Positions 34,446 to 64,000 of a DNA stretch of 64,000 nucleotides are shown in pieces; the stretch's first letter is position 1, and each line of letters starts with the position of its first letter. Location of the stretch: assembly GCF_001499675.1 (NCBI RefSeq), contig NZ_LN609302.1, forward strand, positions 2,389,896-2,453,895, written 5' to 3'. The stretch comes from Acetobacter ghanensis. GTDB lineage: Bacteria; Pseudomonadota; Alphaproteobacteria; Acetobacterales; Acetobacteraceae. Position numbers and translations under genes: made by a program. The notes below the pieces were generated by a model. That model did not search any database and was not told the origin of the DNA. It was given only the letters and a program-made list of their open reading frames with translations.

Positions 34446-34847
34446 TCAGGCCTCACACCCCAAGGCGGCGGCGCCAGCCAGAGCACAGGCTTCGTCCATG
34501 TCGGCACTAGCTCCCCCTACACCAACGGCGCCCAGCAAGGTGCCGTCCCGCAGCAATGGCACAGCACCTTTTGCATAAATCATGTTCTGGCCTTCAAGCT
34601 CTGCAATCCTGTTCATCACAACTGAGGTTGGAGGAATAGCGCCACTCTGGCAGCGTGTAGCGGCCGCCGTAAGCGCCTTGCCCTGACACCCGTAAATACT
34701 GGCCCAGTTTGACTGGTCCATACGCGCAAAAGCCACCAGCCTGCCCCCTGCATCGCAAACAGCAACACACACAGCAATTTCCAGTTCGGTGGCTTTGGAT
34801 AATGCAGCCTGCAAAGCACACTGTGCCTGCTCGTAGGTCAACGTCAT
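34446..34847 (-). CDS. GlcG/HbpS-like (heme-degrading domain family) protein
   Basis: A 133-residue protein of the GlcG/HbpS (DUF336) family: MTLTYEQAQCALQAALSKATELEI, GGRLVAFARMDQSNWASI, AKGAVPLLRDGTLLGAVGVGGASADMDEACALAGAAALG. Members are small oligomers found as extra genes in many catabolic operons, and some bind heme; here the role is unknown. It is the last gene of the carbamate kinase operon, 16 bp after the DUF2877 gene, with a usable ribosome binding site (AAGGAAT). It converges on the ABC ATPase gene. Confidence 0.82.
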   Translation of the reverse strand: MTLTYEQAQCALQAALSKATELEIAVCVAVCDAGGRLVAFARMDQSNWASIYGCQGKALTAAATRCQSGAIPPTSVVMNRIAELEGQNMIYAKGAVPLLRDGTLLGAVGVGGASADMDEACALAGAAALGCEA

Positions 34848-34863
34848 TCTTTATTCCTTACTG

Positions 34864-35729
34864 TCAAATAGCATCGGCCCCGTGCCCCAGCACATGCAAG
34901 GCCCATACAAACCCGGCCAGACTATCGGCCCCGGAGCTGTAACCGTGCTGGATAACCGCACCTAACAACCTCAGACGCACATCCTGCTTTTGGTCTGGCA
35001 TGTCATTCAGCAACAGGCTTCGCCAGTCCTCGCTGACATGACCCTGCGCCGCTGAGACGAGAAAAGCATAGGAAAGCGTTGTTGTTTTCCCCTTTGCCGA
35101 ATCCACAATGCTTTCACACACAGTATCGGGCATAGGCAAGACCTGATGTGCGGCAAGCATGACCCCGCATAAAAAGTCATCCCCCGCGGGGGTCAGGCCG
35201 CGCCCCAAACCAACACATGCGCTGGCTCCTGCAAAAATCCTGTCCCTGTCTTGCCTTATCAAACCCATAGCCAGTTGCGTGCCATCCCAACCCGGCATAT
35301 CCAGCCTTGTGGGGTTATCCGCAACAGCCGCCAGATAGTCTGACTGATGCGTCAGTTTTTTTACATCCTGCAAAAGGAGCGCATATGTTTGGATATTTTG
35401 CCATGACACGTGCGCCTTCCCCACAAAGGAAGGCCATGTGGTGGCACCCTGCAACCGTATACTCCACTCCCCCAGTTGCAGCGTCTGGCCATCGCACCAC
35501 ATGGGGCCATGTTCCTCCATGACCGGCGGCCATGAAGCCAACATGAGCGTATAGGGCGTCATACACTCAGATGGGGGGGAAAGGATAAGCATGGTGCCTA
35601 CATCCCCCTCCCCACCAGCAGATAAACATGACGTGCAAACGTGGCCAGCAGGCGGACTGGCTGCTTATGGCGCCCGGCCAGAGCTTGTGTAGCAAATGCT
35701 GCAATACGTTGAGGCCGGACCTCCATCAT
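34864..35729 (-). pseudogene. DUF2877 protein (AllH/YlbF-like), one-base frameshift near the start
   Basis: Relative of E. coli YlbF/AllH, a subunit of oxamate carbamoyltransferase. The main frame (from 35592) has the family motif GLGRGLTPAGDDFLCGVML and the late GHGADAI. The usual N-terminal part, MMEVRPQRIAAFATQAL and onward to HVYLLVG, lies upstream in another frame starting at 35729, where its ATG overlaps the carbamate kinase stop (ATGA). One extra G in the GGGG run (35610-35613) would join them as LLVGEGDVGTMLIL. So the gene most likely starts at 35729 and is intact, with one base missing in this sequence. Confidence 0.75.
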
Positions 35730-36679
35730 GCCGCAGGATTTGCCCCTACAGAAGCCGGGGTGGGAGTGGCCTGGTCTGGCACAATCCACGTTCCCGCTTT
35801 GCCTTCCACAATCTGGCTGATTTCGGTCAAGGAGCCAATGGCGGCACATTTGCCCGTCTTGCGGACAAAATTCACGGCGGCTTCTATCTTGGGTCCCATG
35901 GATCCCTTGGAGAAAGCTTCCGTCATCAGGTCCTGTGGCGTGACCTTTTGCAAAAGGCGCTGGTCTGGCGTGTCATACGCCTCGTAAACGCCGGACACGT
36001 CGGTCGCGATAATAAACAGGTCAGCCGGAATATGGGTGGCCAGCAAGCTGGATGCGCGGTCCTTGTCTATAACGGCTTCCACCCCTTCCATCCTGTTGTC
36101 TCCGGTATCCACTACGGGAATACCGCCACCACCGGCGCAGATAACAACGGCCCCGTTTTCCAGCAGCCAGCGAATGGGCCTGTGCCAGAGAATCCGCTTG
36201 GGCTGGGGGGATGGCATAACACGCCGCCACTTGCGCCCGTCCTGCCGAAACAGCCAGCCGTTCTGGGCCGTCAGCCCCTCAACCTGCTCCTGCTCAAACG
36301 TGGGACCTATGAATTTGCTTGGGTCCGAAAATTCAGGGTCATCCCGATCAACTTCCACGCGGGTCAGGATGGTTGCAATGGGCACATCATAACCGAGAAT
36401 ATTGCCCAGTTCCTGCTCCAGCATGTAGCCGATCATGCCCTCGGTCGCAGCACCCATAATATCGAAAGGATAACCTTTCGCTCCTTTAAATGCTTCTGAC
36501 TGCATGGCCAGCAGGCCAACCTGCGGGCCATTGCCGTGGGTCAGAATAACCTGATGCTCCCGCGCAACAGGGGCAAGGGACTGCGCGGCGGCGCGGGCAT
36601 TGCGCCATTGCGTATCCATGCTCAGCGGTTCACCGCGTTGCATCAGGGCATTTCCCCCCAGTGCTATCACCAGTTTCAT
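35726..36679 (-). CDS. Carbamate kinase
   Basis: Makes ATP and carbamate from carbamoyl phosphate and ADP. The 317-residue protein has the amino-acid kinase fold: MKLVIALGGNALMQRG, LTHGNGPQVGLLAMQSEA, VICAGGGGIPVV, VIDKDRASSLLATHIPADLFIIATDVSGVY and GSMGPKIEAAVNF, all standard for ArcC/AllK. The C-terminal 15 residues are extra. It heads an operon with the DUF2877 gene (four-base overlap) and the GlcG-like gene. No arginine deiminase or ornithine carbamoyltransferase is near, so carbamoyl phosphate should come from the FdrA/DUF1116/DUF2877 carbamoyltransferase encoded alongside. Confidence 0.95.
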   Translation of the reverse strand: MKLVIALGGNALMQRGEPLSMDTQWRNARAAAQSLAPVAREHQVILTHGNGPQVGLLAMQSEAFKGAKGYPFDIMGAATEGMIGYMLEQELGNILGYDVPIATILTRVEVDRDDPEFSDPSKFIGPTFEQEQVEGLTAQNGWLFRQDGRKWRRVMPSPQPKRILWHRPIRWLLENGAVVICAGGGGIPVVDTGDNRMEGVEAVIDKDRASSLLATHIPADLFIIATDVSGVYEAYDTPDQRLLQKVTPQDLMTEAFSKGSMGPKIEAAVNFVRKTGKCAAIGSLTEISQIVEGKAGTWIVPDQATPTPASVGANPAA

Positions 36680-36699
36680 GACTGTACCTTACTTTCGCG

Positions 36700-37004: not shown

Positions 37005-37787
37005 GTGAGCAATTCCAGTTTGGAAACAGCCGAAAAACCTAAAGGTCTTGTTGGCTCCCTGGCTTATGGTCTGAACATCATCATGGCGTTTGACAGAGCC
37101 AACCCACGTATGACCCTGTCTCAGGTTTCGGAAAAAACCGGCATGGATCGCGCCGGGGCACGCCGCTACCTGCTTACATTGGTTCATCTTGGTTTTGTGG
37201 TGCAGGATGGCCGCCTTTTTCAGCTCACCCCCAAGGTTATGGAACTAGGATACGCCTATCTATCCTCCGTTCCTCTGGCGGATAAGGCGCAGTATTATCT
37301 GGACCGCATACGCGACCAGACCGGATTCCCTGTTGCACTGGGCATTCGCGATGGGTTGGATGTTGTGCATATCGCCTCCGCCAACAGTGATGAGTTCAGC
37401 TCCCCCGCATTAACAATCGGGCGTCGCTTCCCCATAGCCTATGCCTCCGCCGGGCGCTGTATTCTGGCTATGATGGACAAAGCGGACCGGGACACCCTGC
37501 TCAAGGAAATCAAACTTGAGCCGATGTCTGAAAAGAGCATCAACACCATGGCGGCCCTACGCAAGCAGCTCCAGCTTGTTCGTAAACAGGGCTACGCGGT
37601 GGTTGATCAGGAAATGCAGATTGGCGTGCGGTCTCTGGCTGTACCCATCCTCAATGCACGGGGCCAGATTACGGCCAGTTTCAACACCTTTACATTTAGC
37701 GGTATTGTTCCAACGGAAAAACTGATTTCCGATGCGCTGCCAGCCATACAGGCCGCAGCAGAAGAACTGCGCGCAACACTTATTTAA
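37005..37787 (+). CDS. IclR-family transcriptional regulator
   Basis: A 260-residue regulator starting with GTG. The N-terminal winged helix is visible (about residues 15-75: SLAYGLNIIMAFDRANPRMT, LSQVSEKTGMDRAGARRYLLTLVHLGFV), followed by the IclR effector domain (IRDQTGFPVALGIRDGLDVVHIA, GRRFPIAYASAGRCILAMM, QGYAVVDQEMQIGVRSLAVPIL, ASFNTFTFSGIVPTEKL). The pattern resembles the PcaU/PobR group that responds to aromatic or small organic acids. It lies between the carbamate kinase and FdrA operons and is the likely regulator of the whole island. Confidence 0.93.
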   Translation: MSNSSLETAEKPKGLVGSLAYGLNIIMAFDRANPRMTLSQVSEKTGMDRAGARRYLLTLVHLGFVVQDGRLFQLTPKVMELGYAYLSSVPLADKAQYYLDRIRDQTGFPVALGIRDGLDVVHIASANSDEFSSPALTIGRRFPIAYASAGRCILAMMDKADRDTLLKEIKLEPMSEKSINTMAALRKQLQLVRKQGYAVVDQEMQIGVRSLAVPILNARGQITASFNTFTFSGIVPTEKLISDALPAIQAAAEELRATLI

Positions 37788-38038: not shown

Positions 38039-38067
38039 ATGTTTCAAATTCGCACATATGTTCACAT
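38039..38067 (+). promoter_or_regulatory. Candidate shared operator, copy 2 (FdrA operon promoter)
   Basis: ATGTTT at 38039, 15 bases, then GTTCACAT at 38060. GTTC (38060-38063) also forms a palindrome with GAAC (38071-38074). The element overlaps an upstream ATG at 38058, which argues that translation starts at 38085. Confidence 0.55.
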
Positions 38068-39617: not shown

Positions 39618-39620
39618 TTG

Positions 39621-41162
39621 ATGGCATCCAGAATTGTCATCCGCCCGCGCGAATATCATGACTCTGTACGTCTGATGCGCGCATCCGAGGCCATTCGGCA
39701 GGAAGCCGGCGTGAGAGAGGCCATGGCCATGATGGCCACCGCCAACAACAAGAAAATTCTTGATACCTCCGGCCTGCTGACGGACGAAGTCAAAGCCGCC
39801 AACCCGGATGATCTGATTATTGCTGTGGTAGCGGAGAGCGAAGCCGAGGCAGAAAATGCCATTTCTGCGGCTCAGGATTTTTTGAACCAGAAGGTACAGA
39901 GCGGGCAACAAACTCTCATCCCCCGCTCTATTGATGCCGCATGTGCCACACAGCCCGCCATTAATCTGGCCTGTATTTCTGTCCCCGGAATTTATGCGTA
40001 TCGGGAGGTCAAGCGCGCGCTGGAGCTTAATCTGAACGTCTTTTTGTTCAGCGATAATGTAAGCCGCGCGGATGAACGCAAGCTCAAGGAACTGGCAAAA
40101 GAAAAAAACCGCCTGTTGATGGGGCCAGATTGCGGCACGGCCTTAATCAACGGTATCGGACTGGGCTTTGCCAATGCTGTCCGCCGCGGGCGCGTTGGTC
40201 TTGTTGCGGCATCTGGCACCGGCACGCAGGAAATTTCCTCCCTGCTGGACTGGCTGGGCTGCGGCGTCAGTCAGGCCATTGGCACCGGCGGGCGCGACCT
40301 CCAGCAGGACATCGGCGGCCTGACCATGTTGCAGGGGCTGGCCATGCTGGCCGAGGATGCGGAAACAGACGTTATTGTTGTCACATCCAAACCGCCCAGC
40401 CCGGACATTGCAGATACCATTGTCAACTTTTGCGCCAAATTGGACAAACCTGTTGTCATCAACTTTGTCGGGCAGAACAGCACGGGGCAGAACGGTAACA
40501 TCACGTTCACCAGCACACTGGCCCAGACAGCCCTGACCGCAGGCCGCCTGATTGACCCGACCTGCGAACTGCCGCAACTGGCGAACGCTACAAAAGACCA
40601 GTTTGTGCAAAATGCCAAGGCAGCCCGCGGCCCCTCCCAGCGTTACCTGCGGGGTTTGTATGCTGGCGGCACGCTCTGTTACGAGGCCCTGTTCCTGCTG
40701 CGCGAACAACTGGGGGGCATTTACTCCAACCTCGAACACGGCGCTTTTGAGCTGAAAGACCTGTTCAGCAGCAAGGAACATACAATTATCGATCTGGGGG
40801 ATGACGCCTATACCGAAGGGCGCGCGCACCCCATGATAGACCCAACACTCAGAAACCAGCGGATTTTACAAGAAGCACAGGACCCCGAGGTCGCCGTGCT
40901 GCTGCTGGACCTTGTTATTGGGTACGGTGCGCACGAAAACCCCGCCGCACAACTGGCGCAGACTCTTGTGCAGGCCCGCGAGATTGCACGGGCCGATGGG
41001 CGCGAGTTGCCCGTCATCGTAACCATCTGCGGCACCAAAAATGATGTGCAGAATTACGACCAGCAGGCCGCACAACTCCGGGACGCAGATATTCTGGTTG
41101 CTGGCAACAATGCAGAGGCCGTGCTGCTGGCAGGCCGTTACATGGAGACAATCAATGTCTGA
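39621..41162 (+). CDS. fdrA: FdrA-family protein (carbamoyltransferase subunit AllF-like)
   Basis: Homologue of E. coli FdrA/AllF, which resembles the CoA-ligase SucD and is one of the subunits assigned to oxamate carbamoyltransferase. Visible: an N-terminal CoA-binding-like Rossmann part (LIPRSIDAACATQPAINLACISVPGIYAYREV), LMGPDCGTALINGIGLGFANAVRRGRVGLVAASGTGTQEISSLLD, a ligase-like second part with IDLGDDAYTEGRAHPMIDPTLRNQRI and LLLDLVIGYGAHENPA. At 513 residues it is shorter than many relatives. Start ATG at 39621 or TTG at 39618. It is coupled to the small downstream gene by an overlap. Confidence 0.9.
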   Translation: MASRIVIRPREYHDSVRLMRASEAIRQEAGVREAMAMMATANNKKILDTSGLLTDEVKAANPDDLIIAVVAESEAEAENAISAAQDFLNQKVQSGQQTLIPRSIDAACATQPAINLACISVPGIYAYREVKRALELNLNVFLFSDNVSRADERKLKELAKEKNRLLMGPDCGTALINGIGLGFANAVRRGRVGLVAASGTGTQEISSLLDWLGCGVSQAIGTGGRDLQQDIGGLTMLQGLAMLAEDAETDVIVVTSKPPSPDIADTIVNFCAKLDKPVVINFVGQNSTGQNGNITFTSTLAQTALTAGRLIDPTCELPQLANATKDQFVQNAKAARGPSQRYLRGLYAGGTLCYEALFLLREQLGGIYSNLEHGAFELKDLFSSKEHTIIDLGDDAYTEGRAHPMIDPTLRNQRILQEAQDPEVAVLLLDLVIGYGAHENPAAQLAQTLVQAREIARADGRELPVIVTICGTKNDVQNYDQQAAQLRDADILVAGNNAEAVLLAGRYMETINV

Positions 41163-41357: not shown

Positions 41358-42623
41358 ATGTCCAGCCTAAAAACACTGATTGAAGACGCCAATGCAAAAA
41401 CGCTGGATATTATCCTGCGTGGCAAACCCCAGCTTGTTGACGTAGCTCCCGCGCTGGAGGTTGTGCCGGGTATGCTGCCCAACCTGATCATGCATTCCGG
41501 CCCTGCCATTGCATGGGATGATATGTGCGGCCCCCACAAACAGGGCATTATTGGCGCAGCCCTGTGGGAAGGGCTGGCCAGCACGCCGGAAGAGGCCGAA
41601 CGCCGTATCCGTGCAGGAGAAATCCTGACCGCACCTTGCCACAACCATGTTTCGGTCGGAGCTGGTGCAGGCATTACCTCGGCCTCCACGCCGATGCTGA
41701 TTGTGGAAAACACCACTTTTGGCAACCGCGCCTATAGCTGTATTTCCGAAGGTGGTGGGCTGCGCCTGCTGAAATGGGGCGCTTATGATGATACGGTTTT
41801 CCAAAACCTGACGTGGCAGGCCAAGGTTTTTGCGCCTGTTCTGAGCAAGGCTTTGCAGGCATCTGGCCCCATTGATATCCGCAACATCATCTCTCGCGCA
41901 GTGGAAATGGGGGATGAATGCCATAACCGCTCCATTGCCGCGACATCCCAGTTCCTTAAGGAAATGTACGGCCATCTGGTGGCACTGGACATGCCAGCGG
42001 AAGATGTGCGCAGCTCCATAAAATTCCTTGTAGATTCTGAGCATTTTCTTCTCCATGCCATTATGGCGGCAGCCAAGGCCATGCTGGTGCCAGCCGAAGG
42101 TATTGAATACAGCACCATTGTTACCGCAATGGCGCGAAATGGCGTGGAATTTGGCATCCGCGTAAGCGGACTGGGGGACCAGTGGTTTACCGCCCCAGCC
42201 AACCCGGTAACGGGCCTGTTTTTCCGCGCGGAATGGAATGATTCCAACGCTGCCCCCGACCTGGGCGACAGCGCCATTACCGAGACCGTTGGCCTTGGCG
42301 GCTTTATCCAACCCACGGCCCCTACCGTTACGCAGTATGTGCAAGGCTCCGTGCAGCAGGCCATTGCCAATACGCTGGAAATGCAGGAAATCTGCGCCAC
42401 AACCAACCCGGATGTGCGTATTCCCGCCATGGACTTTGCCCCCGGCCCCATTGGCATAGACATTCGCAAAGTTATCCAGACCGGCATTCTCCCTTTGCTG
42501 GACACAGCCATAACCCACAAGGATGGTGGGCTGATTGGCGCGGGGGAAGTACGGGCTCCCATAGGATGTTTTGAAAAAGCTCTCAAAGCATTTGGGCAAA
42601 AACTGGGAGGGCAGACAGCATGA
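41358..42623 (+). CDS. DUF1116 protein, first of two paralogues (AllG/YlbE-like)
   Basis: Relative of E. coli YlbE/AllG and YahG. The 421-residue protein contains the family signatures LHSGPAIAWDDMCGPHKQGI-type MHSGPAIAWDDMCGP, ILTAPCHNHVSVGAGAGITSAS, VEMGDECHNRSIAATSQFL and MARNGVEFGIRVSGLGDQWFTAP, then IGIDIRKVIQTGILPLLDTAI. Cysteine and histidine in APCHNH and GDECHNR are good candidates for a catalytic or metal site. AllG with AllF and AllH converts oxalurate and phosphate to oxamate and carbamoyl phosphate in E. coli. It overlaps the next gene by four bases. Confidence 0.9.
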   Translation: MSSLKTLIEDANAKTLDIILRGKPQLVDVAPALEVVPGMLPNLIMHSGPAIAWDDMCGPHKQGIIGAALWEGLASTPEEAERRIRAGEILTAPCHNHVSVGAGAGITSASTPMLIVENTTFGNRAYSCISEGGGLRLLKWGAYDDTVFQNLTWQAKVFAPVLSKALQASGPIDIRNIISRAVEMGDECHNRSIAATSQFLKEMYGHLVALDMPAEDVRSSIKFLVDSEHFLLHAIMAAAKAMLVPAEGIEYSTIVTAMARNGVEFGIRVSGLGDQWFTAPANPVTGLFFRAEWNDSNAAPDLGDSAITETVGLGGFIQPTAPTVTQYVQGSVQQAIANTLEMQEICATTNPDVRIPAMDFAPGPIGIDIRKVIQTGILPLLDTAITHKDGGLIGAGEVRAPIGCFEKALKAFGQKLGGQTA

Positions 42624-43885
42624 CATCTCTGATCGAACGCATTGACGCCGCTAATCAGGAGGCATTCTCCCGTCTGGTTGCGGCCAAGCCGGTCTGGGTG
42701 GACGTGCGCCCGGCACTGGAAGTTCTGCCGGGCATGACCCGCCAGACCATCCTGCACGCCGGTCCGCCCATTGCATGGCAGGATATGTGCGGCCCGCAAA
42801 AAATGGGCGTCGTGCAGGCAGCCCTGCACGAAGGGCTGGCCGCCACAGAGGCCGAGGCCGAAGAGTTGATTATGGCTGGCAAGATCCTTGTCGCGCCGTG
42901 CCATGAACACGGAGCCGTTGGGGGCATGGCGGGCATTACCAGTGCCTCCAGCCCCATGGCCGTGGTGTATGACAGCGTGCATGAGCGGTATGGGTATTCA
43001 CAACTTTTCCAAGGCCCTGCCGCCGGTCTGCTCAACCGGGATGATTATAACCGGGAAGCCCGCAAACGCTGGACATGGCTTGAGACCGTGCTGGGGCCGG
43101 TTCTGGGCAAAGCCATCCGCAGCACCAGCGGTATTCCCGTTAAACCCATGATCGCCCGCGCGCTAGAAATGGGGGACGAATGCCATAACCGCAACAGCGC
43201 GGGCAGCACCGTTATTTTAAACGCCCTGATCCTACCGCTTTATGAGACCTGCACGGACCCCGCACTTTTGCAGGAGGTTCTGGACTACCTCAAGGTCAAC
43301 GAGCAGTTCTCGCTCTGCCTGTCCATGGCTGCGGGCAAGGCTATGGCGGATGCAACAAAAGGGATCCCATACAGCACCATGGTCTCCGCCATGTGCCGCA
43401 ATGGTGTTAACTTTGGCATCAAGGTCAGCGGGCTGGGAGAACACTGGTTTACGGCCCCCGCCAACCGGATTGAAGGACTGTTCTTTTCTTCCGAATGGAG
43501 CGATGCTGATGCCGTGCCCGATATTGGCGATAGCAGTATTATGGAAACCATAGGTCTGGGCGGCCATGTTCAGGCCGCCGCGCCTGCGTTGCAGCAGTTT
43601 GTTAACGGTTCCTTTGCGCGTGCCACATCGGTTGTGGAGAGTATGCAGCTGATTACGCTTGGGCAGGTGGCGGAATTTAAAATCCCCAACATGAACTTTA
43701 TCGGGGCTCCTACGGGCATAGATATCCGCAAGGTTGTGCAAACCAGCATTACACCCGTTATTGATACAGCCATTGCCCACAAAAAGGGCGGGGTCATTGG
43801 CGCCGGGCAAACCCGCGCACCGTTTGACTGCTTTGCACAGGCGCTACGCGCATTTGGCGCACAGTATAAACCGGCAACAGCCTAA
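42620..43885 (+). CDS. DUF1116 protein, second paralogue (AllG/YlbE-like)
   Basis: Also 421 residues, and clearly a tandem paralogue of the preceding gene: the same blocks recur (LHAGPPIAWQDMCGPQKMG, ILVAPCHEHGAVGGMAGITSAS, LEMGDECHNRNSAGSTVIL, MCRNGVNFGIKVSGLGEHWFTAP, TGIDIRKVVQTSITPVIDTAI). Identity looks like roughly half by eye. The APCHEH and GDECHNR motifs are retained, so both copies may be active. Two copies could make a heteromeric enzyme or two substrate specificities. Confidence 0.9.
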   Translation: MTSLIERIDAANQEAFSRLVAAKPVWVDVRPALEVLPGMTRQTILHAGPPIAWQDMCGPQKMGVVQAALHEGLAATEAEAEELIMAGKILVAPCHEHGAVGGMAGITSASSPMAVVYDSVHERYGYSQLFQGPAAGLLNRDDYNREARKRWTWLETVLGPVLGKAIRSTSGIPVKPMIARALEMGDECHNRNSAGSTVILNALILPLYETCTDPALLQEVLDYLKVNEQFSLCLSMAAGKAMADATKGIPYSTMVSAMCRNGVNFGIKVSGLGEHWFTAPANRIEGLFFSSEWSDADAVPDIGDSSIMETIGLGGHVQAAAPALQQFVNGSFARATSVVESMQLITLGQVAEFKIPNMNFIGAPTGIDIRKVVQTSITPVIDTAIAHKKGGVIGAGQTRAPFDCFAQALRAFGAQYKPATA

Positions 43886-43942: not shown

Positions 43943-45433
43943 TTAAACAACACCAGCCCAGCTATTGCGCCGCCAGTCGCTTACGGCAAAGGGCTCCCCT
44001 CCCGCATTCATTCCCGCACACGCAACAGCCCCAAAGCAGAGCGCACCGGGGGCGCGTTCCTCTATGGCGTGCCCCAAGGCGCGCAGTCCGGCCGCGGACG
44101 GGTGGTCACGCTCCATCAACAATTTGCCACCCTCGCTCCGCCAGCGGGGTGCGGCAATGGCGGTGGCAATATCTTCCCCCCGCCGCATAATCCGATCAAT
44201 GACCTGCAACAGGGTTTGCACTTGTCCATCCGCACCAGGCGTTGCCAGCGCCATAACGCCACCAGCGGACCTGAGCAACGCCGGGGCCAACGTATGTACC
44301 GGCCTGCTGCCCGCAGCCCACGCATTGGGGCCGCTGGTAAAACCCCCTGCCCTATTGTTGAGCGTAATGCCCAGATCTGGAATCAGAAGGCCAGAGCCAA
44401 AGTCATCGAACACACTAACAAGGGAGGAAACAACCATGCCCTGACGGTCAGAAACCGAAACACCCGCAGTATGCAGGTAACCACGTGGCCCCCCACGTCT
44501 GGCGGCGTGGTCCGGATCGACCGGCAAGTGCACATCCAGCAACGCGGCTCCTTCCGCCGCGCGGTCCCGATAGCCAAAGGAGGCTTCCGTCAGCTCAACA
44601 GCAAGGTGGTCCGCCTGCACATCGCTCTGGGGGACCCAGTGCCCGAAGTTTTTGAGCGCCATACCCAGCAGCACACCCTGTGTGGGAGGAGGCTGTACAA
44701 ACACCGTTGCCGCCCCCAAGCTGACGGACAAAGGAGCTGTTACATCCGTCTGGTGTGTAGCCAGGTCCTGCTCATCCAGCGTGCCGCCATACTCGGCCAC
44801 ACGGCGGGCCAGACTGGCGGCAATCTCTCCGGTATAAAAACAGTCCGGGCCATCCGTTACAAAGCGGCGCAGAAGGGCTGCCAGTTCCGGTTGCACAAAC
44901 AGTTGCCCTGCCCGTAACCCCATTAACGACCATTCCCCCGCTCCATTGCGGAGCAGCCGGGGCGTATGCGCATGCACCACCTGCTCCAGCGCGGAGGACA
45001 GGTGAACGCCCTCCTCCGCCAGACGGATTGCCTTGTCCATAAGAGCAGAAAAAGGGAGCTTCCCCCAACGGCTATGCATACGCGCCCATGCACCGGCCAA
45101 ACCGGGCACTGTAACGCTTTTAGCCCCTTCATCCGCACAATCCGTGGCTTTGTGGGGTAAGGCGCCTGCGCCACTTATGGCGTGTGTCTGAGCGCCATCC
45201 GCCACCAGCGCGAACAGGTCCCCCCCTATGCCACAGGCATCTGGCGCCACAACGCACAGAACAGCCTGCGCGGCGATGGCAGCATCCACAGCGCTGCCTC
45301 CACGCGCCAGCACATCCTGCCCTGCGGATACAGCCAGAGGATGTGCAGCGGAAACCGCTCCCCACGGGCCGGAAATAACCGGTCTGACGGGAGATGAAAA
45401 ACCATCGGCAATATGCCAGTGCCCGTATGCCAT
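43943..45433 (-). CDS. Gamma-glutamyltransferase family protein, cytoplasmic
   Basis: N-terminal-nucleophile hydrolase. It lacks a signal peptide, unlike the periplasmic enzymes. Motifs: AAHPLAVSAGQDVLARGGSAVDAAIAA near the start, GIGGDLFAL, the maturation/nucleophile site HTAGVSVSD (Thr322), VVSSLVSVFDDFGSG and LNNRAGGFT. Thr322 should become the N-terminus of a small subunit of about 175 residues. A glutamine-synthetase-like ligase lies in the same island, so this enzyme probably removes (or transfers) a gamma-glutamyl group put on an amine substrate, as in isopropylamine or putrescine pathways. It is the last gene of the long operon, 4 bp after the SDR gene. Confidence 0.85.
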   Translation of the reverse strand: MAYGHWHIADGFSSPVRPVISGPWGAVSAAHPLAVSAGQDVLARGGSAVDAAIAAQAVLCVVAPDACGIGGDLFALVADGAQTHAISGAGALPHKATDCADEGAKSVTVPGLAGAWARMHSRWGKLPFSALMDKAIRLAEEGVHLSSALEQVVHAHTPRLLRNGAGEWSLMGLRAGQLFVQPELAALLRRFVTDGPDCFYTGEIAASLARRVAEYGGTLDEQDLATHQTDVTAPLSVSLGAATVFVQPPPTQGVLLGMALKNFGHWVPQSDVQADHLAVELTEASFGYRDRAAEGAALLDVHLPVDPDHAARRGGPRGYLHTAGVSVSDRQGMVVSSLVSVFDDFGSGLLIPDLGITLNNRAGGFTSGPNAWAAGSRPVHTLAPALLRSAGGVMALATPGADGQVQTLLQVIDRIMRRGEDIATAIAAPRWRSEGGKLLMERDHPSAAGLRALGHAIEERAPGALCFGAVACAGMNAGGEPFAVSDWRRNSWAGVV

Positions 45434-45436: not shown

Positions 45437-46177
45437 CTAGACCGCCGTATAACCGCCATCAACCACAAACGATGTGCCCGCCATGTAACGCCCGCCCGAG
45501 GACGCCAGCAGCAGAATAAGGGCTGCAACCTCATCTGGCGTACCATGGCGGCCCAAGGGAATCTGCCGGTCTATGACCTGACGTTTTTCCTCCGGATCAC
45601 GCTGATAAGACCAGAAAGGGTCGTTAAACGGTGTTTCAATCCATCCGGGCAGAACACAGTTGATGCGAATACCCAAAGGCCCCAGTTCCGCGGTAAGGCT
45701 GCGCGCCAGCCCCGGCAGGGCGGCCTTTGTTGCCTGATAGGCCGACATCCCCGCGTGCCCCTTGATTGCCCCGGTCGAAGACGTAAAAATGACGCTGGGG
45801 TTATCAGATTTTGCCAAATATGGGGCCGCTGCCTGCGTAAAGAAAAACGGCATTTTAAGATTAAGGGCCACGGTTCGGTCCCACATCTCGTCCGTCCAGT
45901 CCTCCAGTGCGGCGGACATCATAACCGCAGCCGTCACCAGCAGCGTGTCCACACCACCAAAGTTTGCGACAGCCAGATTAACCGCCTCCTGCGGCACCCC
46001 CGGCTCCGCAAGGTCCCGCAAAAGGAACAGGCAAGCCCCCTTGGCGTCCTCTTCCACAACTGAGCGTGCTTCTTCCCGGTGGTCGATCAGGATGACATTG
46101 TCCCCCTGCGCCCGAAATTTTCTGACACAGGCACGACCAATACCCGTCGCCCCGCCTGCCACAATGACCGTTGCCAT
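45437..46177 (-). CDS. Short-chain dehydrogenase/reductase
   Basis: Classical SDR of 246 residues. NAD(P) motif VAGGATGIGRACV near the start, acidic residue in LIDHREEA at the end of strand 2 (suggests NAD rather than NADP), active-site Ser in SSTGAIKG, and the YxxxK pair in SAYQATKAALPGL. Typical C-terminal IDRQIPLGRHGTPDEVA and FVVDGGYTAV. It probably oxidises an alcohol produced by the neighbouring P450 or Rieske oxygenase. Confidence 0.93.
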   Translation of the reverse strand: MATVIVAGGATGIGRACVRKFRAQGDNVILIDHREEARSVVEEDAKGACLFLLRDLAEPGVPQEAVNLAVANFGGVDTLLVTAAVMMSAALEDWTDEMWDRTVALNLKMPFFFTQAAAPYLAKSDNPSVIFTSSTGAIKGHAGMSAYQATKAALPGLARSLTAELGPLGIRINCVLPGWIETPFNDPFWSYQRDPEEKRQVIDRQIPLGRHGTPDEVAALILLLASSGGRYMAGTSFVVDGGYTAV

Positions 46178-51225: not shown

Positions 51226-52379
51226 TTGTCGCACCGGAAAGCTGAGAGCTTGTCTTCATCAATGGTAATGCCAAGGCCCGGAGCATCCAGCGGCAGAATG
51301 GCACCGTTGCTGACCTGCATGGGTTCGGCCAGAATATCGTCATCATAATAATGGCCAGCCACACGGTAGGGGTGCTGGCCTTTGGGCGCGCTAATTGCAA
51401 TAACCGCACCAAGGGACACGGCGGGACGAGCCAGCGCAAAATGCACATTGGCGGCAGTGCCAATGGCGGATTCAATGGAGCCGTTCACATCGCACTGCAT
51501 CAGCGATGCCGCAGCCAGATCCGCCACTTTGCAGGCTCCGGCAATGCCCCCAGCCTTAGCCAGATAGACCGAAATACAATCCGCCGCCCGTGCGGACAGC
51601 ACATCCAATGCGTCGTTCACATCCCAGCAGCTTTCATCCGCTATGATCGGCACGGGGGATGCGGCAGTTACTTCCGCCATGTAGCGCAGACCTTCGGTCG
51701 GCTGTTCCACAAGGCTGACGCCTGCATCCACAAGGCGGCGCACCGTGGCGGTGGCTGTTTTGGCATGACCATAACCCTGGTTGGCATCCAGACGGAGCGT
51801 TACGCCATCTCCCAACCGTGCCCTTAATGCACCAATCAGGCGAATATCACGCTCGGCATCTGTTCCCCCTTTGATCTGGAGGCAGGAAACACCGTCCTCC
51901 ACCGCCATAACGGCTTCTTCCAATGCGTCCGCCTCGGGCATAAGGCCGACCATGTGCGCAACTGGCACACTGTCCCTCACCTTGCCGCCCAACAGTTTAT
52001 AAACTGGCAGCCCCACGCATTTGCCCCATGCGTCATACAGCGCGATGCTGACGGCACATTTGGCATAAACATTACCCACCGCCACGCGGTCCATAATCTG
52101 TGCAGCGCTGGTAACGGCCGTTACGTCCTGCCCCACCAGTGCTGGCGCAATAACCGTGCGAATAATGTTGATGACCGTGCCCAGCGTTTCGCCTCCGTGG
52201 CGCGCAAAGTCACCGCCCCAATCGGGCAGAGGTGTTGCTTCGCCATACCCGACAACGCCGTTTTCAGTTTCGATCCGAACCGCAACAAAATTTCCAAGTT
52301 CACCGAGCATCCCCGCCCAGCGGAAATCACGCCGAGTTGGCAGGGAAAAAGGGAAAGCCTCAACAGAAATAATCTTCAA
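51222..52379 (-). CDS. Mandelate racemase/muconate lactonizing enzyme family protein
   Basis: Enolase-superfamily enzyme of 385 residues. N-terminal capping domain first, then the barrel with catalytic lysine in LQIKGGTDAERD, metal ligands D in RLDANQGYGHAKT, E in LVEQPTEG and D in IADESCWDV, and the second lysine in YLAKAGGIAG. Two opposing lysines mark the MLE subgroup (racemases, epimerases, cycloisomerases). Coupled to hyuA by a four-base overlap, it may racemise the hydantoin or ureido intermediate. The start is a TTG at 52379 with GGAG about 10 bases upstream. Confidence 0.88.
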   Translation of the reverse strand: MKIISVEAFPFSLPTRRDFRWAGMLGELGNFVAVRIETENGVVGYGEATPLPDWGGDFARHGGETLGTVINIIRTVIAPALVGQDVTAVTSAAQIMDRVAVGNVYAKCAVSIALYDAWGKCVGLPVYKLLGGKVRDSVPVAHMVGLMPEADALEEAVMAVEDGVSCLQIKGGTDAERDIRLIGALRARLGDGVTLRLDANQGYGHAKTATATVRRLVDAGVSLVEQPTEGLRYMAEVTAASPVPIIADESCWDVNDALDVLSARAADCISVYLAKAGGIAGACKVADLAAASLMQCDVNGSIESAIGTAANVHFALARPAVSLGAVIAISAPKGQHPYRVAGHYYDDDILAEPMQVSNGAILPLDAPGLGITIDEDKLSAFRCDK

Positions 52380-52518: not shown

Positions 52519-53712
52519 TCATGGGGCAACCAATACTTTTCGGTAGGGGACAAGGGATGCCGCAACCACCATGACCGCACAGGAAAGCCCCCAGTAGGCA
52601 GACCAGTGTGTTAACGCCAGATAGATGGGCGGGGCCGTCAGACAGATAAGGGACGTCAACTGCCCCACAAGGCCGGACACAAACCCAATATCTTCCTGTT
52701 TGCTTACAAATGTTGGAAGCTGGGCCATAGTGCCCCCCGCCATGCCTCCAAAGGCCAGAAGCCAGCAGATAAGCGCCACAAGGGCCAGACCAAATGTGCC
52801 ATTGGGAAAAAACAGGACAAAAAGAGACGCCAGACCAAAACAGACCAGTGTACGATACATAACTCTGTAATGGACCTTTTTGGTCAGGATGTGCCCGGTC
52901 ACCACGCCACCGAGGATCATGGCAAAAATTTTGGCTCCTGCTATGCCACTATTGGACATGCCCAGTTCCACCCCATACACCCGCGCAAGGTAGGAAGGCG
53001 TAACAACACTCACGCCATAGGCAACCGCATTAGGCAAAGCCAGTGCAAAGGCCAGCCGGATAATGGCACTCTCTTTAAACAGAAGGCGCAGGCCGCCGGC
53101 ACCCGCATTAACCTTGATCTGCGCTTTGCGGCGTGGAAGCAGAAACGCCAGGCAGGTTAGAGCCGCAAAAATGATGGCGTGCCACACAAAAGCATGTTGC
53201 CACACGTCGCCTGTTGTAAAAGGCACTGCCAGCAACAGCCCAAAAGCATACCCAACCGGCCCGTAAGTTGACCAGAACGACAAGGCGCGAGTCCGGGCAT
53301 CCCCCTCCAGCCACGAGACGAGGGCAGAAGGACACGTGACCGTCAGCGCCCCAAAGGACGCCCCGGCCAGACACATGCCAGCATAAACCCAGACCCACCC
53401 CGTGGCCCAGCTCAGGCATACATCGCCCGCAATGGCCAGAATACCGGCCAACATCATACCAGCACGAATACCAATCCGGTCCACAAGGCGGCCTATGGGC
53501 ACGCAGGCCAGCGCCGAAGGAACAGAAAACAGCGATATTGCAAACCCCGCTTTAGGGGCCGTCATGGACAGGTCATGCGTGACATGTGGCAGGAACGATA
53601 CAAACACGCCAATACTGGCCATGGACGCCACAATCATGGCGTAACAGAACAGGACCAGCCAAACAGACGGTGCGTTATCGAGGAAAGGGCTGACATTCAC
53701 AGGCTCTTTCAT
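52519..53712 (-). CDS. MFS transporter
   Basis: A 397-residue inner-membrane protein with 12 hydrophobic segments. The loop 2-3 motif is PIGRLVDRIGIRAGMMLAG, and a second-half partner is CFGLASLFVLFFPNG. The overall pattern resembles the OxlT/monocarboxylate-like branch (uptake of organic acids) more than drug exporters. It lies 1 bp from the esterase gene, so it probably imports the product released outside the cytoplasm. Substrate unknown. Confidence 0.85.
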   Translation of the reverse strand: MKEPVNVSPFLDNAPSVWLVLFCYAMIVASMASIGVFVSFLPHVTHDLSMTAPKAGFAISLFSVPSALACVPIGRLVDRIGIRAGMMLAGILAIAGDVCLSWATGWVWVYAGMCLAGASFGALTVTCPSALVSWLEGDARTRALSFWSTYGPVGYAFGLLLAVPFTTGDVWQHAFVWHAIIFAALTCLAFLLPRRKAQIKVNAGAGGLRLLFKESAIIRLAFALALPNAVAYGVSVVTPSYLARVYGVELGMSNSGIAGAKIFAMILGGVVTGHILTKKVHYRVMYRTLVCFGLASLFVLFFPNGTFGLALVALICWLLAFGGMAGGTMAQLPTFVSKQEDIGFVSGLVGQLTSLICLTAPPIYLALTHWSAYWGLSCAVMVVAASLVPYRKVLVAP

Positions 53713-59683: not shown

Positions 59684-61006
59684 ATGATGAGCGCCGAACA
59701 AAATGCCCTGATAACCCGCATTACGCAGGATCAACCCGCGGGTAAGCTGCTACGCCATTACTGGCAGCCCGCGGCCCTTGCTGTGGAGCTGGAAGGCCAG
59801 CGCCCCATCCGCCCTGTAGAGCTTTTGGGCCAACACTTTGTGCTGTTCCGGGATGAGGACGGCAATCTGGGGATGCTCGACCGAGACTGCCCCCACCGCA
59901 ATGCGGACCTAGCCTTTGGCCGTCTGGAAGATGGCGGGCTACGGTGCCCTTTTCATGGCTGGTTGTTTGACGTTAAAGGCCGATGCCTGCAAACCCCAGC
60001 CGAGCCCAAAGGCAGCACCCTTTGCAAGCGTATTCAGCAGAAATCCTACCCGGTTATTGAAAAAAGCGGCATTATCTTTGCCTATCTGGGCGAAGGTGAG
60101 CCGCCTGCATTCCCCGATCTGGACTGTTTTGTGGCTCCGGATGACTATGTGTTTGCCTTTAAAGGGTTAATTGACTGCAACTGGTTGCAGGCCCTTGAGG
60201 TTGGCATTGACCCCGCCCATGCCAGTTTCCTCCATCGTTTTTTTGAAGATGACGAACCCGAATCTGCCTATGGGCGGCAGTTCCGCGCCACATCGGCCGA
60301 CAGCAATATTCCCATGACCCGCGTGCTGCGCGAGTTTGACTGCCCCGACATTGCCGTGGAAACAACGGATTATGGCCTACGCCTGATTACCACCCGCACC
60401 ATGAACGAGGAAAATACCCATGTGCGGGTCACCAATGTTCTGTTCCCACAGGCTTTTGTTATTCCACTTTCCAGCGAAATGACCATTACCCAGTGGCACG
60501 TGCCGATTAACGATACGAGCTGCTACTGGTACGCCATCTTCACCAGCTTTTCCGGTCCGGTCAACAAGAAGCAGATGCGCGAACAACGCCTGAAGCTTTA
60601 CACCCTGCCCGACTACCGCCCCCGTGTTGGCCGCGCCAATGACTATGGATTCGACCCCTACGAACAGGCCAGCAAAACCTACACCGGCATGGGGGATGAC
60701 ATTAACGTCCACGACCAATGGGCCATCGAATCGCAAGGGCATATACAGGACCGCACGCGCGAACATCTAGGCCAGACGGATAAGGGCATTATTGCCTACC
60801 GCCGCATGTTGATGAACGCCATCGACCGGGCACAGCGGGGGGAAACACCGCTTATGGTGCTCAACACCTCGCAAGCCACCCAGATTCAAGGCCCGGCCAC
60901 CATGGACGGAGTCGGTCCGACCAACGGAACAGAGAACTACTGGAAAGACGTAGATGCCCGCCGCCGCAACGCCGCCCCATGGCGACAGGACGCGGCACAG
61001 GCGTAA
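59684..61006 (+). CDS. Rieske non-heme iron oxygenase, alpha subunit
   Basis: A 440-residue oxygenase component of the phthalate-dioxygenase type. The Rieske cluster motif is CPHRNADLAFGRLEDGGLRCPFHGW (C-x-H ... C-x2-H), near residues 68-92. The mononuclear iron ligands are in IDPAHASFLHRF (His and His), with a later Asp. Start is ATG at 59684 or the next ATG at 59687, preceded by AGGAG. No separate beta subunit is present, consistent with the homotrimeric group. It would need a reductase; the divergent ferredoxin/reductase pair is the obvious partner. Confidence 0.92.
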   Translation: MMSAEQNALITRITQDQPAGKLLRHYWQPAALAVELEGQRPIRPVELLGQHFVLFRDEDGNLGMLDRDCPHRNADLAFGRLEDGGLRCPFHGWLFDVKGRCLQTPAEPKGSTLCKRIQQKSYPVIEKSGIIFAYLGEGEPPAFPDLDCFVAPDDYVFAFKGLIDCNWLQALEVGIDPAHASFLHRFFEDDEPESAYGRQFRATSADSNIPMTRVLREFDCPDIAVETTDYGLRLITTRTMNEENTHVRVTNVLFPQAFVIPLSSEMTITQWHVPINDTSCYWYAIFTSFSGPVNKKQMREQRLKLYTLPDYRPRVGRANDYGFDPYEQASKTYTGMGDDINVHDQWAIESQGHIQDRTREHLGQTDKGIIAYRRMLMNAIDRAQRGETPLMVLNTSQATQIQGPATMDGVGPTNGTENYWKDVDARRRNAAPWRQDAAQA

Positions 61007-62451: not shown

Positions 62452-62515
62452 CCTCCCTCGCCCTCAATAACAACCGACCATCCCTTAGCAAGGCCCCCAA
62501 CACACAGGAACCGGC

Positions 62516-63766
62516 ATGAAAATTCTTCCTCTGGCCTCTTCCCTTCTGGCTGTTGCCACGGTTCTTTTGCCTGCACCAACCAGAGCCGCAGCGCCCGCCG
62601 CCTTTTATGACTGGACGGCACCCGTAACCGCTGCTCCCGGCACATTGCTCCGCAGCGAACCGCTTAAGGCTGACTGGCTTCCAAAAGATACGGGAAATGC
62701 CTACAAAATTCTGTACAGTTCGCGCAATGGCATGGCGGCGGATGGCAACGTGCCGGTTTCGGGCTATGTGCTTTTTCCTTCTGGCCCGGCACCCAAAGGG
62801 GGCTGGCCGCTGGTGATCTGGGCGCATGGCACAACAGGTGTGGCGGATGTGTGCGCCCCATCGTGGATGGGTCCCCGCCCCAGAGACCAGCTTTACCTGA
62901 ATACGTGGCTCAAGCGCGGTTTTGCCATTGTTGCATCCGATTATCAGGGCTTAGGCACACCGGGAACACACCCTTACCTGCTGTACAGGCCCGAAGCCTA
63001 CAGCCTGCTGGATGCGGCCCGTACGGTACTGGCCCAGCACAACTTTGCCCTACAAAACAAAATTATGATTGTTGGACAGTCACAAGGTGGGGGGGCCGCG
63101 CTCGCGGCAACATGGGCGTTTCCACAATATGCACCGGAACTGAAGGTTAAAGGCGCCGTGCTAACAGGGTTGGTAACGGCCATCCATCAGGATACCCCCG
63201 AACAGAACGAAAAGCGCTACACAACCGTGGATGCCATGGACCCGGCGTTTGCCACCCTACGGCTGGCAGGCACAGATCAGGCCATTCATCCCGAAACGGA
63301 CCCAACGTCTCTTTTTTCCGAAAATGGAAAAAAAATGCTCGAAGTCGCTCGAACGGGCTGCCTGCATGACCTGTTTGATGAAGCCAAAAAACTGGGCATT
63401 AAAACGGGCAAGGAGCTTTTGGCTGCCGATATTACCGCATACGACCGTGACATGAGCCACTATTTTGAACTCCCCGATGGCCATGTGAGTGTTCCCGTGT
63501 TTTTGGGCACCGGTCTGGCCGATGGCATGGCGGGCACAACGGGGCAGTATGGTGCAGCACTCGCCCTGTGCCGGGCTGGCAGCACCGTGCAATGGCACAC
63601 ATATCCGGGTGTTACGCATAATGGAGCCGTCAATTACTCGCTGCCAGATTCAGCGCAGTTCACGCACGATGTCATGGCCGGGCGGCCCGTTGCCTCATCG
63701 TGCAACAACCTGACACCTCCAGGCCCCGTACAAAAACCTGCCCCCTACATTCCTTTCAACCAGTAA
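62516..63766 (+). CDS. Secreted lipase-family alpha/beta hydrolase
   Basis: A 416-residue protein with a signal peptide (MKILPLASSLLAVATVLLPA ending in TRAAA). The secretory-lipase type fold shows VSGYVLFPSGPAPKGGWPLVIWAHGTTGV, SDYQGLGTPG, the nucleophile elbow VGQSQGGGAALA, an aspartate in FLGTGLADGMAG and a late HNGAVNY. Export to the periplasm or medium is expected. The gene follows the glutamine-synthetase-like gene by 64 bp, so it may provide substrate from an ester. Confidence 0.85.
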   Translation: MKILPLASSLLAVATVLLPAPTRAAAPAAFYDWTAPVTAAPGTLLRSEPLKADWLPKDTGNAYKILYSSRNGMAADGNVPVSGYVLFPSGPAPKGGWPLVIWAHGTTGVADVCAPSWMGPRPRDQLYLNTWLKRGFAIVASDYQGLGTPGTHPYLLYRPEAYSLLDAARTVLAQHNFALQNKIMIVGQSQGGGAALAATWAFPQYAPELKVKGAVLTGLVTAIHQDTPEQNEKRYTTVDAMDPAFATLRLAGTDQAIHPETDPTSLFSENGKKMLEVARTGCLHDLFDEAKKLGIKTGKELLAADITAYDRDMSHYFELPDGHVSVPVFLGTGLADGMAGTTGQYGAALALCRAGSTVQWHTYPGVTHNGAVNYSLPDSAQFTHDVMAGRPVASSCNNLTPPGPVQKPAPYIPFNQ

Positions 63767-63794
63767 TGGCGCATCATCAAAGGACAAGCAGCGC

Positions 63795-64000
63795 ATGAAC
63801 ATCCCCCACTCAGCCCACACCGCAACGGAGCCTGATGGGTGGGCTGTGGACATTCTGCTCGCCCGCCCCGGCCATGACCAACCTTTGCTTAACCAGCGCA
63901 TAACCACCCACAACGGGTTATTGTGCGCCCCGCAAGCCGAAGCACCCAACCCCTTGGGGGCCGGGCGGGTGGCTCTGCCAGCCTTTGCCAATGCTCATGA
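63795..64000 (+). CDS. Amidohydrolase-family protein, N-terminal part only
   Basis: The frame is open from ATG at 63795 to the window edge (68 codons). It begins MNIPHSAHTATEPDGWAVDI and reaches GRVALPAFANAHE/D at the edge: a beta strand followed by the FANAHD-type metal-binding motif that opens the barrel of cytosine/adenosine deaminase-like amidohydrolases. The class cannot be decided from the visible part. Being in this island, it might be a deaminase or ring-opening hydrolase. Confidence 0.6.
   Translation, partial: MNIPHSAHTATEPDGWAVDILLARPGHDQPLLNQRITTHNGLLCAPQAEAPNPLGAGRVALPAFANAH

What the first reader, a model, noticed from the sequence alone, without database searches (positions are those of the whole stretch)
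34446..64000. Possible new ureide/hydantoin catabolic system coupling an ATP-dependent hydantoinase to an FdrA/DUF1116/DUF2877 carbamoyltransferase and carbamate kinase
Seen: an FdrA homologue, two DUF1116 proteins, a DUF2877 protein and carbamate kinase in two operons flanking an IclR regulator, with HyuA/HyuB, an enolase-superfamily enzyme, a P450, a Rieske oxygenase and a gamma-glutamylation pair nearby. Known: in E. coli the FdrA (AllF), DUF1116 (AllG) and DUF2877 (AllH) proteins are the subunits assigned to oxamate carbamoyltransferase, and carbamate kinase then makes ATP. Inference: here there are no allantoin genes; a ureido acid made by HyuAB would be split by phosphate instead of by water, so ATP spent on ring opening is recovered. 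The rest of the pathway suggests an aromatic or heterocyclic substrate taken up through a TonB receptor after ester cleavage.
Basis: partly seen in the sequence, partly recalled or inferred. Interest (0 to 1): 0.9.

Follow-up and report, generated by a model that had tools for sequence, protein, structure and literature searches.

The report
Ureide-splitting catabolic island, two-AllG transcarbamylase
Some acetic acid bacteria and marine relatives share a gene island that probably opens a nitrogen ring compound and recovers energy from it, using an unusual carbamoyl-transferring enzyme accompanied by a transporter-type binding protein that seems to stay inside the cell.

Summary
In detail: every gene named is present, and the island runs past the window end. 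Directly before fdrA lies a family-5 solute-binding protein (SBP5) without signal peptide. None of the 68 listed clade members has a hydrophobic leader; 49 of the next 52 homologues do. AllG1 and AllG2 are an old paralogous pair, two sister clades. Fourteen core genes, HyuAB included, recur in 8 of 8 genomes found with the system, in two families. So HyuAB and the transcarbamylase do belong together, but only in this rare variant: none of 18 other AllG loci looked at has HyuAB nearby, and 9 loci with HyuAB relatives lack the transcarbamylase. The proposed chemistry (HyuAB opens a ring, AllF/G1/G2/H phosphorolyse the ureido acid, carbamate kinase makes ATP) is plausible but inferred; HyuAB may be a lactamase, and 7 of 8 genomes also hold a HyuC-family carbamoylase elsewhere. 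Substrate unknown. Verdict: new variant of the FdrA-type transcarbamylase in a conserved catabolic island.

The parts
34446..34847 (-). HbpS-like protein
   Evidence: PF03928, 2.4e-27; present in the 8 genomes compared
34864..35592 (-). AllH (DUF2877) subunit
   Evidence: PF11392, 8.7e-22
35726..36679 (-). carbamate kinase
   Evidence: NF009008 441 bits over cut-off 361; TIGR00746 372.5 over 358
37005..37787 (+). IclR-type regulator
   Evidence: PF01614, PF09339
38058..39617 (+). family-5 solute-binding protein without signal peptide (predicted cytosolic)
   Evidence: PF00496 2e-78; no leader in the window or in L003-L008; 0 of 68 listed clade members with a hydrophobic leader
39621..41162 (+). 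FdrA/AllF subunit; ORF listed from TTG 39618, likely start ATG 39621, 3 nt after the SBP5 stop
   Evidence: NF004760 504 bits; PDB 3dmy 289 bits; spacing
41358..42623 (+). AllG1 (DUF1116)
   Evidence: PF06545 3.9e-78; residues conserved among AllG proteins kept except one L-to-M
42620..43885 (+). AllG2 (DUF1116), overlaps AllG1 by 4 nt
   Evidence: PF06545 5.5e-71; sister clade of AllG1
43943..45433 (-). gamma-glutamyltranspeptidase family
   Evidence: PF01019 8.8e-87; below the NCBIfam equivalog cut-off
45437..46177 (-). SDR dehydrogenase
   Evidence: PF13561
46191..47393 (-). cytochrome P450
   Evidence: PF00067; a pattern for the usual haem loop found nothing, but a cysteine in a matching loop, IGYGAGIHACVA, was read by eye in the sequence that call printed
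47390..49123 (-). HyuB subunit; ORF listed to 49180, start near 49123 is my inference
   Evidence: PF02538 1.4e-168; HLPD and HHVD segments read by eye
49123..51234 (-). HyuA subunit with both phosphate-binding motifs
   Evidence: PF01968/PF05378; DIGGTFTD and DMGGT; best PDB N-methylhydantoinase 7hk5, 452 bits
51222..52379 (-). enolase-superfamily protein (muconate cycloisomerase / dipeptide epimerase relatives), KxK replaced by QIK
   Evidence: PF13378; TIGR02534 246 bits, below cut-off 335; motif in the 7 loci read
52519..53712 (-). MFS transporter
   Evidence: PF07690
53714..55300 (-). carboxylesterase
   Evidence: PF00135
55322..57694 (-). TonB-dependent receptor
   Evidence: PF00593, PF07715
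57941..59173 (-). ferredoxin reductase
   Evidence: PF07992, PF14759
59173..59721 (-). 2Fe-2S ferredoxin (true start probably internal)
   Evidence: PF00111 over residues 88-165
59684..61006 (+). Rieske oxygenase
   Evidence: PF00355, PF19301; best PDB 9ina, 216 bits, then 7fhr, a putative phthalate 4,5-dioxygenase, 200 bits
60979..62451 (+). GS-like, gamma-glutamyl organic amide synthetase type
   Evidence: PF00120; best PDB 8wwu = NpaA1, 474 bits
62516..63766 (+). secreted-lipase family (LIP)
   Evidence: PF03583

Best explanation
A conserved catabolic island. Shown by sequence: gene content, co-conservation, catalytic motifs, the missing signal peptide. Inferred: the chemistry. HyuAB uses ATP to open a cyclic ureide or amide made by the P450/SDR/GGT/enolase-superfamily enzymes of the same operon. 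A variant FdrA-type transcarbamylase, made of AllF, two different AllG paralogues and AllH, then moves the carbamoyl group of the ureido acid to phosphate. Carbamate kinase turns the carbamoyl phosphate into ATP, ammonia and CO2. The signal-less SBP5 protein, encoded 3-13 nt before AllF, most likely acts in the cytosol as a substrate-binding partner of the transcarbamylase, handing it the ureido acid or setting its specificity.
For: All parts present. Core of 14 genes (SBP5, AllF, AllG1, AllG2, AllH, CK, IclR, HbpS, HyuA, HyuB, enolase-type, P450, SDR, GGT) in 8 of 8 genomes of two families. E. coli AllFGH is a transcarbamylase in print (PMC11326118; abstract and discussion read). Carbamate kinase over the curated cut-off. 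HyuA phosphate motifs and HyuB segments kept. No hydrophobic leader in the 68 listed SBP5-clade members; SBP5 stop 3-13 nt before allF in 7 of 8 loci. 20 of 67 SBP5-clade contig lengths recur in the AllG list, against 3 in the HyuA list used as a control. Both AllG copies keep the AllG-wide residues except one L-to-M in AllG1 (16 of the 40 rows are the pair itself) and form sister clades.
Against: No activity, expression or complex is shown. HyuAB lies below every equivalog cut-off and is not closer to hydantoinases than to caprolactamase in a decisive way. The published AllFGH substrate is oxalurate, an acyl urea, whereas opening of a hydantoin would give an alkyl urea (recalled chemistry). 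7 of 8 genomes hold a HyuC-family carbamoylase elsewhere. AllH and CK sit in a separate divergent unit in the window. HyuAB linkage could not be tested in most of the SBP5 clade: the HyuA list ends at 858 bits, above the marine members' HyuA.
Confidence: 0.5

Rival explanations
1. HyuAB is an ATP-dependent lactamase acting on an (aryl) lactam or another cyclic amide and does not make the ureido acid. The transcarbamylase substrate arises by another route, for example from the amidohydrolase.
For: HyuA scores 500 bits against the caprolactamase model and HyuB 279. The caprolactamase paper describes lactam and oxindole-type substrates in the family (PMC8453981, passages). A GoaS-type amine ligase and a Rieske oxygenase lie beside it in the window. 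HyuAB relatives of 50-55% occur in 9 loci of 6 genomes without FdrA-type neighbours.
Against: Caprolactamase equivalog cut-off of 1000 bits not reached; best PDB relative is N-methylhydantoinase; co-conservation with the transcarbamylase in 8 of 8 genomes.
Confidence: 0.25
2. Two independent pathways travel together on one horizontally moved island, a ring/aromatic pathway with HyuAB and a separate carbamoyl pathway, without metabolic coupling.
For: Patchy distribution: AllG pairs in 3 of 48 same-genus relatives; SBP5 in 2 of 19 in the genus of K. intermedius and 1 of 22 in the genus of Oceanicola S124. Separate transcription units.
Against: 14 genes stay together in 8 of 8 genomes of two families although orientation and transporters differ.
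Confidence: 0.13
3. The SBP5 protein is an ordinary importer component, exported in a non-classical way or with a misread start.
For: The fold family is that of periplasmic peptide-binding proteins.
Against: No hydrophobic leader in 68 of 68 listed clade members, one of them a short gene model that says nothing, against 49 of the next 52 homologues (a plain hydropathy threshold, no dedicated signal-peptide predictor). No leader upstream in the window and in L003-L008. Both marine loci carry a Dpp/Opp importer with its own second SBP5 that does have a leader.
Confidence: 0.06
4. The FdrA/AllG complex here is not a transcarbamylase but an acyl-CoA or acyl-phosphate ligase-type enzyme that happens to neighbour a carbamate kinase.
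For: FdrA carries CoA-ligase and CoA-binding domains.
Against: AllFGH of E. coli is a transcarbamylase in print; AllG, AllH and carbamate kinase all accompany it here.
Confidence: 0.06

Closest known systems
E. coli oxamic transcarbamylase AllFGH with carbamate kinase AllK (PMC11326118, abstract and discussion read)
   Same: AllF, AllG, AllH homologues plus carbamate kinase
   Different: Two paralogous AllG instead of one; an SBP5 without signal peptide encoded just before AllF; AllH and CK in a divergent unit; no allantoin-pathway genes seen in the annotated stretch; HyuAB attached
allFGHK next to biuret/triuret genes in nitrifiers (PMC12625717, passages read)
   Same: The FdrA-type set outside an allantoin locus, beside other ureide-type genes, without known upstream purine genes
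   Different: biuH/trtA instead of HyuAB; the authors propose oxalurate as substrate; neither a second AllG nor an SBP5 is mentioned in the passages seen
E. coli yahEFGIJ-type cluster (DUF2877, FdrA, DUF1116, carbamate kinase, amidohydrolase; L088)
   Same: An FdrA-type set with carbamate kinase next to an amidohydrolase, reaction unassigned as far as I know
   Different: One DUF1116, no HyuAB and no SBP5 among the 15 listed features (that gene table is incomplete)
Ureidoglycine transcarbamylase of Rubrobacter (UGTCase, PMC4016543, passages read)
   Same: Phosphorolytic removal of a carbamoyl group from a ureide, with a carbamate kinase gene next to it
   Different: ATCase-type enzyme, not FdrA/AllG, in a purine pathway
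ATP-dependent lactamase/hydantoinase family (CapAB, HyuAB, N-methylhydantoinase)
   Same: HyuA with two phosphate motifs and HyuB with HLPD and HHVD segments
   Different: Below the equivalog cut-offs; substrate unknown
Glutamyl organic amide synthetases (NpaA1, PMC11335346, passages read)
   Same: GS-like ligase next to a Rieske oxygenase
   Different: NpaA1 works with the NpaA3A4A5 dioxygenase and the GAT-like NpaA2; here a Rieske protein nearest to phthalate-dioxygenase-type entries, and a GGT

Membership tests
Oxamic transcarbamylase (AllFGH) | AllF/FdrA subunit | tested here: met
   NF004760 504 bits over 433; PDB 3dmy
Oxamic transcarbamylase (AllFGH) | AllG and AllH subunits | tested here: met
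   PF06545 twice, PF11392 once, all over cut-off
Oxamic transcarbamylase (AllFGH) | carbamate kinase gene linked | tested here: met
   35726-36679
Oxamic transcarbamylase (AllFGH) | one AllG, one allFGHK operon, beside allECD | tested here: not met
   Two AllG; AllH and CK divergent; no allantoin-pathway gene among the ORFs annotated at 24627-63766 and to ~67 kb. Window 1-24600 and the rest of the genome were not searched for allantoin genes
Oxamic transcarbamylase (AllFGH) | oxamate + carbamoyl phosphate <-> oxalurate activity | not testable with these tools
   needs purified protein
ATP-dependent lactamase/hydantoinase (HyuAB) | HyuA and HyuB domains with phosphate motifs and HyuB metal-site segments | tested here: met
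   residue roles from PMC8453981 (passages); the HyuB segments were matched by eye, not by alignment to CapB
ATP-dependent lactamase/hydantoinase (HyuAB) | substrate class: hydantoin, lactam or oxoproline | tested here: inconclusive
   Caprolactamase model 500 of 1000 bits required; PDB N-methylhydantoinase 452 and 5-oxoprolinase 352 bits
ABC importer solute-binding protein family 5 | SBP_bac_5 domain | tested here: met
   PF00496 2e-78; PDB matches
ABC importer solute-binding protein family 5 | signal peptide or lipobox | tested here: not met
   0 of 68 listed clade members with a hydrophobic leader or lipobox
ABC importer solute-binding protein family 5 | own permease/ATPase genes | tested here: not met
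   None among the cluster genes in the window; the marine loci have an importer that carries its own SBP5
Glutamyl organic amide synthetase (GoaS) | closest to NpaA1 among solved GS-like proteins | tested here: met
   8wwu 474 bits against 179 for the next; identity of 8wwu from PMC11335346
Glutamyl organic amide synthetase (GoaS) | ligation of glutamate to an organic amine | not testable with these tools
   needs purified protein

The most novel reading that the evidence does not exclude
A transporter-type solute-binding protein has been recruited into the cytosol as a subunit or substrate-delivery partner of an enzyme: a five-component transcarbamylase (SBP5, AllF, AllG1, AllG2, AllH). The AllG pair duplicated and specialised together with it, so that the complex can phosphorolyse ureido acids other than oxalurate.
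Probability: 0.35. Interest if true: 0.8.

Novelty: new variant of a known kind. Interest (0 to 1): 0.6.

Why it matters
FdrA/DUF1116/DUF2877 proteins are widespread, and in the papers I saw here the only measured reaction is that of the E. coli allantoin enzyme. This variant gives a defined test case in acetic acid bacteria outside allantoin metabolism. It also raises the possibility that a periplasmic-type binding protein serves as an enzyme partner inside the cell. If the coupling is right, it shows how ATP spent on opening a ring by HyuAB can be regained.

Tried and rejected
Chance grouping of genes: rejected by synteny in 8 genomes. AllG2 as a decayed copy: rejected, since both copies keep the AllG-wide conserved residues apart from one L-to-M in AllG1 (16 of the 40 rows are the pair itself and two rows are the same protein, so the test is partly circular). 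AllG1/AllG2 as a recent local duplication: rejected by the tree (the AllG1 group was chosen by similarity, so its unity is partly by construction; the unity of the second copies and the sister relation are not). Linkage of HyuAB to FdrA systems in general: rejected. Dropped row: L009 (Planctomycetaceae MAG, AllG 41%), because its 11.7 kb contig shows neither a second AllG nor SBP5 nor HyuAB. Plasmid collection: no SBP5 clade member at 1e-110; HyuA relatives all under 60%, top row 52.7%, and the two neighbourhoods read show no FdrA; AllG1 all under 60%; for AllG2 two records at 60-80% identity were counted but not listed, and I did not follow them. Substrate: quinazolinediones, biotin, caffeine ureides and creatinine-like compounds were only thought about, with no evidence for any. 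Structure prediction of SBP5 was interrupted and then switched off, so no fold comparison was made. Papers: 10 searches; 'hydantoinase' with 'FdrA' gave 0 papers; the one paper with hydantoinase, transcarbamylase and carbamate kinase is PMC4016543; the signal-peptide search listed 12 of 131 papers and a phrase search for cytosolic or cytoplasmic solute-binding proteins 4 papers, all seen as listings only. The library is the open-licence PMC set only.

Full report
What is there. The cluster starts at the HbpS-like gene (34446) and runs past the window end: an amidohydrolase (about 63795-65309) and a metallo-beta-lactamase-fold protein (about 65306-66079) follow the lipase, and SelO comes after them. 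ORFs at 1-24600 were listed but not annotated, and the rest of the genome was not searched for allantoin genes.

The gene directly before fdrA (38058-39617) is a family-5 solute-binding protein (PF00496, 2e-78). Only 15 or so residues precede the start of the SBP5 fold, and no signal peptide can be read upstream in the window or in L003-L008. Among the 120 homologues listed there is a sharp break: 68 entries at 49% identity or more (518 bits or more), then 390 bits and below. In these 68 none has a hydrophobic N-terminal stretch (highest 11-residue mean 1.57, threshold 1.8) or a lipobox; in the next 52, 49 have the stretch and 35 a lipobox. One of the 68 (P0027) is a short gene model that says nothing. 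Of the three exceptions among the 52, P0072 and P0082 are fragments 56% identical to the query, which by identity belong to the leaderless clade, and P0119 is a 676-residue protein. AllF starts 3 nt (5 loci) or 13 nt (2 loci) after the SBP5 stop in 7 of 8 loci; the eighth, A. papayae, has broken frames. This points to a cytosolic protein made together with AllF. Both marine relatives also carry a Dpp/Opp importer with a separate SBP5 that has a leader, so the operon SBP5 is not simply that importer's binding protein.

Two AllG paralogues. AllG1 and AllG2 both keep the residues conserved in 40 aligned AllG proteins, except one L-to-M in AllG1; 16 of these 40 are the pair itself. In a 122-row tree (IQ-TREE, quick search, SH-aLRT support) the AllG1-type rows are one clade (100), the AllG2-type rows, including 12 copies picked because their contigs also carry an AllG1 or an SBP5, form one clade with 3 further rows (99), and the two are sisters (99) apart from the other AllG rows. 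Matching of contig lengths gives 20 of 67 SBP5-clade contigs that also carry a listed AllG, 7 of them with two AllG. The same matching with the HyuA list gives 3: two Gluconobacter species named in both lists, and one probably by chance. So SBP5 + AllG1 + AllG2 is an old unit found beyond acetic acid bacteria (names in the lists include Hyphococcus, Sphingomonadales, Oceanicola, Mesobacterium).

Is HyuAB linked? One search gave 7 loci; one (L009, AllG 41%) is not of this variant and was dropped. With the window's own genome and A. vaccinii (G018) there are 8 genomes: own, A. vaccinii, A. thailandicus, A. papayae, Komagataeibacter intermedius, K. oboediens, Oceanicola S124, Mesobacterium pallidum. 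In 8 of 8 a HyuA at least 59% identical lies on the same contig, in a span of about 6.5 to 27 kb with SBP5. Synteny comparison gives 14 genes in all 8: SBP5, AllF, AllG1, AllG2, AllH, carbamate kinase, IclR, HbpS, HyuA, HyuB, the enolase-type protein, P450, SDR, GGT. The Rieske, GS-like and lipase genes were found in 4 of 6 acetic acid bacteria; the fetched sequence of the other two does not reach that far. They were not found in the stretches fetched from the two marine genomes, which have an amidohydrolase, an M20 peptidase and a Dpp importer; Oceanicola also has an amidase there. In contrast, of 18 other alphaproteobacterial AllG loci (L022-L039, 12-20 kb each, from 15 genomes; 18 of the 48 non-own match rows, picked by me and not at random) none showed HyuA, HyuB or an SBP5 of this clade, and 11 showed AllF. 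Nine loci with HyuA 50-55% identical, from 6 further genomes, show none of the transcarbamylase genes beside them in the 8-20 kb fetched. The coupling is therefore specific to this variant.

Distribution. AllG occurs in 9 of 100 relatives, and the AllG pair in 3 of 48 same-genus ones. SBP5 of the clade occurs in 1 of 299 family genomes (the window's own), 1 of 394 of the Mesobacterium family (Mesobacterium itself), 1 of 385 class genomes (own), 2 of 19 in the genus of K. intermedius and 1 of 22 in the genus of Oceanicola S124. The positives were already known. It is rare and patchy, as expected of a mobile accessory island.

How it probably works. E. coli AllFGH converts oxalurate and phosphate to oxamate and carbamoyl phosphate (PMC11326118, abstract and discussion read). 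By homology the variant here should be a transcarbamylase too, and the carbamate kinase (over the NCBIfam cut-off) would make ATP. HyuA keeps DIGGTFTD and DMGGT, and HyuB the HLPD and HHVD segments (HyuB read by eye) that fit the sites described for caprolactamase (PMC8453981, passages), so HyuAB is very likely an active ATP-dependent ring opener. The GS-like protein is closest to NpaA1, a gamma-glutamyl ligase of aromatic amines (8wwu, 474 bits), which fits an amine substrate in the acetic acid bacteria but not necessarily in the marine ones. The enolase-type protein has QIK in place of KxK and keeps YLAKAGG in the 7 loci where it was read, so its reaction cannot be named. The role proposed for SBP5 (substrate delivery or specificity subunit) is inference from gene spacing, co-conservation and predicted location.

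Against the reading. Seven of the 8 genomes have a HyuC-family match over the cut-off elsewhere; A. vaccinii has none over it. The family also rings in 11 of 14 control genomes, 6 of them over the cut-off, so its presence is not remarkable. In the window's genome one such gene lies about 19 kb beyond the window end (near window position 83057). Hydrolytic removal of the carbamoyl group is therefore possible in most hosts. Regulation, complex formation and activity are untested. HyuA relatives of 64-65% in Novosphingobium, closer than the marine ones, could not be placed in context.

Known or new. An FdrA-type transcarbamylase with carbamate kinase is known (AllFGHK). Sets of the same kind outside allantoin loci are known too: beside biuret genes in nitrifiers, where oxalurate is the proposed substrate (PMC12625717, passages), in the yahEFGIJ cluster and in an E. 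coli plasmid cluster. Phosphorolysis of a ureide by a transcarbamylase is known from the UGTCase (PMC4016543, passages). I found no description of the AllG pair, the signal-less SBP5 or the HyuAB/P450 island in the 10 paper searches, most hits of which were seen as listings only. I call it a new variant of a known kind.

Noticed in passing
L033, L035, L036, L037, L083 (about +-10 kb around AllG in unnamed Alphaproteobacteria): A diverged DUF1116/AllG group (L033, L035-L038 form one clade; L083 was not in the tree) sits next to a GS-like gene, in some cases also a Rieske gene, with no FdrA found nearby: DUF1116 without FdrA may do something else.
   Followed up: partly
window 32582-33286: FecCD permease ORF matches only profile positions 2-189 of 311, so it looks truncated or frameshifted near the island's left end.
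   Followed up: no
window 51222-52379: Enolase-superfamily protein with the catalytic KxK replaced by QIK in the 7 loci read, while YLAKAGG on the other side is kept.
   Followed up: partly
L056:5389-6789: Oceanicola S124 has an amidase gene between SDR and ferredoxin inside the otherwise conserved P450/Hyu operon.
   Followed up: no
own genome C1:2472952-2474109 (about window 83057-84214): A HyuC-family carbamoylase gene lies about 19 kb beyond the window end.
   Followed up: no
L004 (A. papayae JCM 25143): Several cluster genes are split in this draft genome, either sequencing errors or decay.
   Followed up: no
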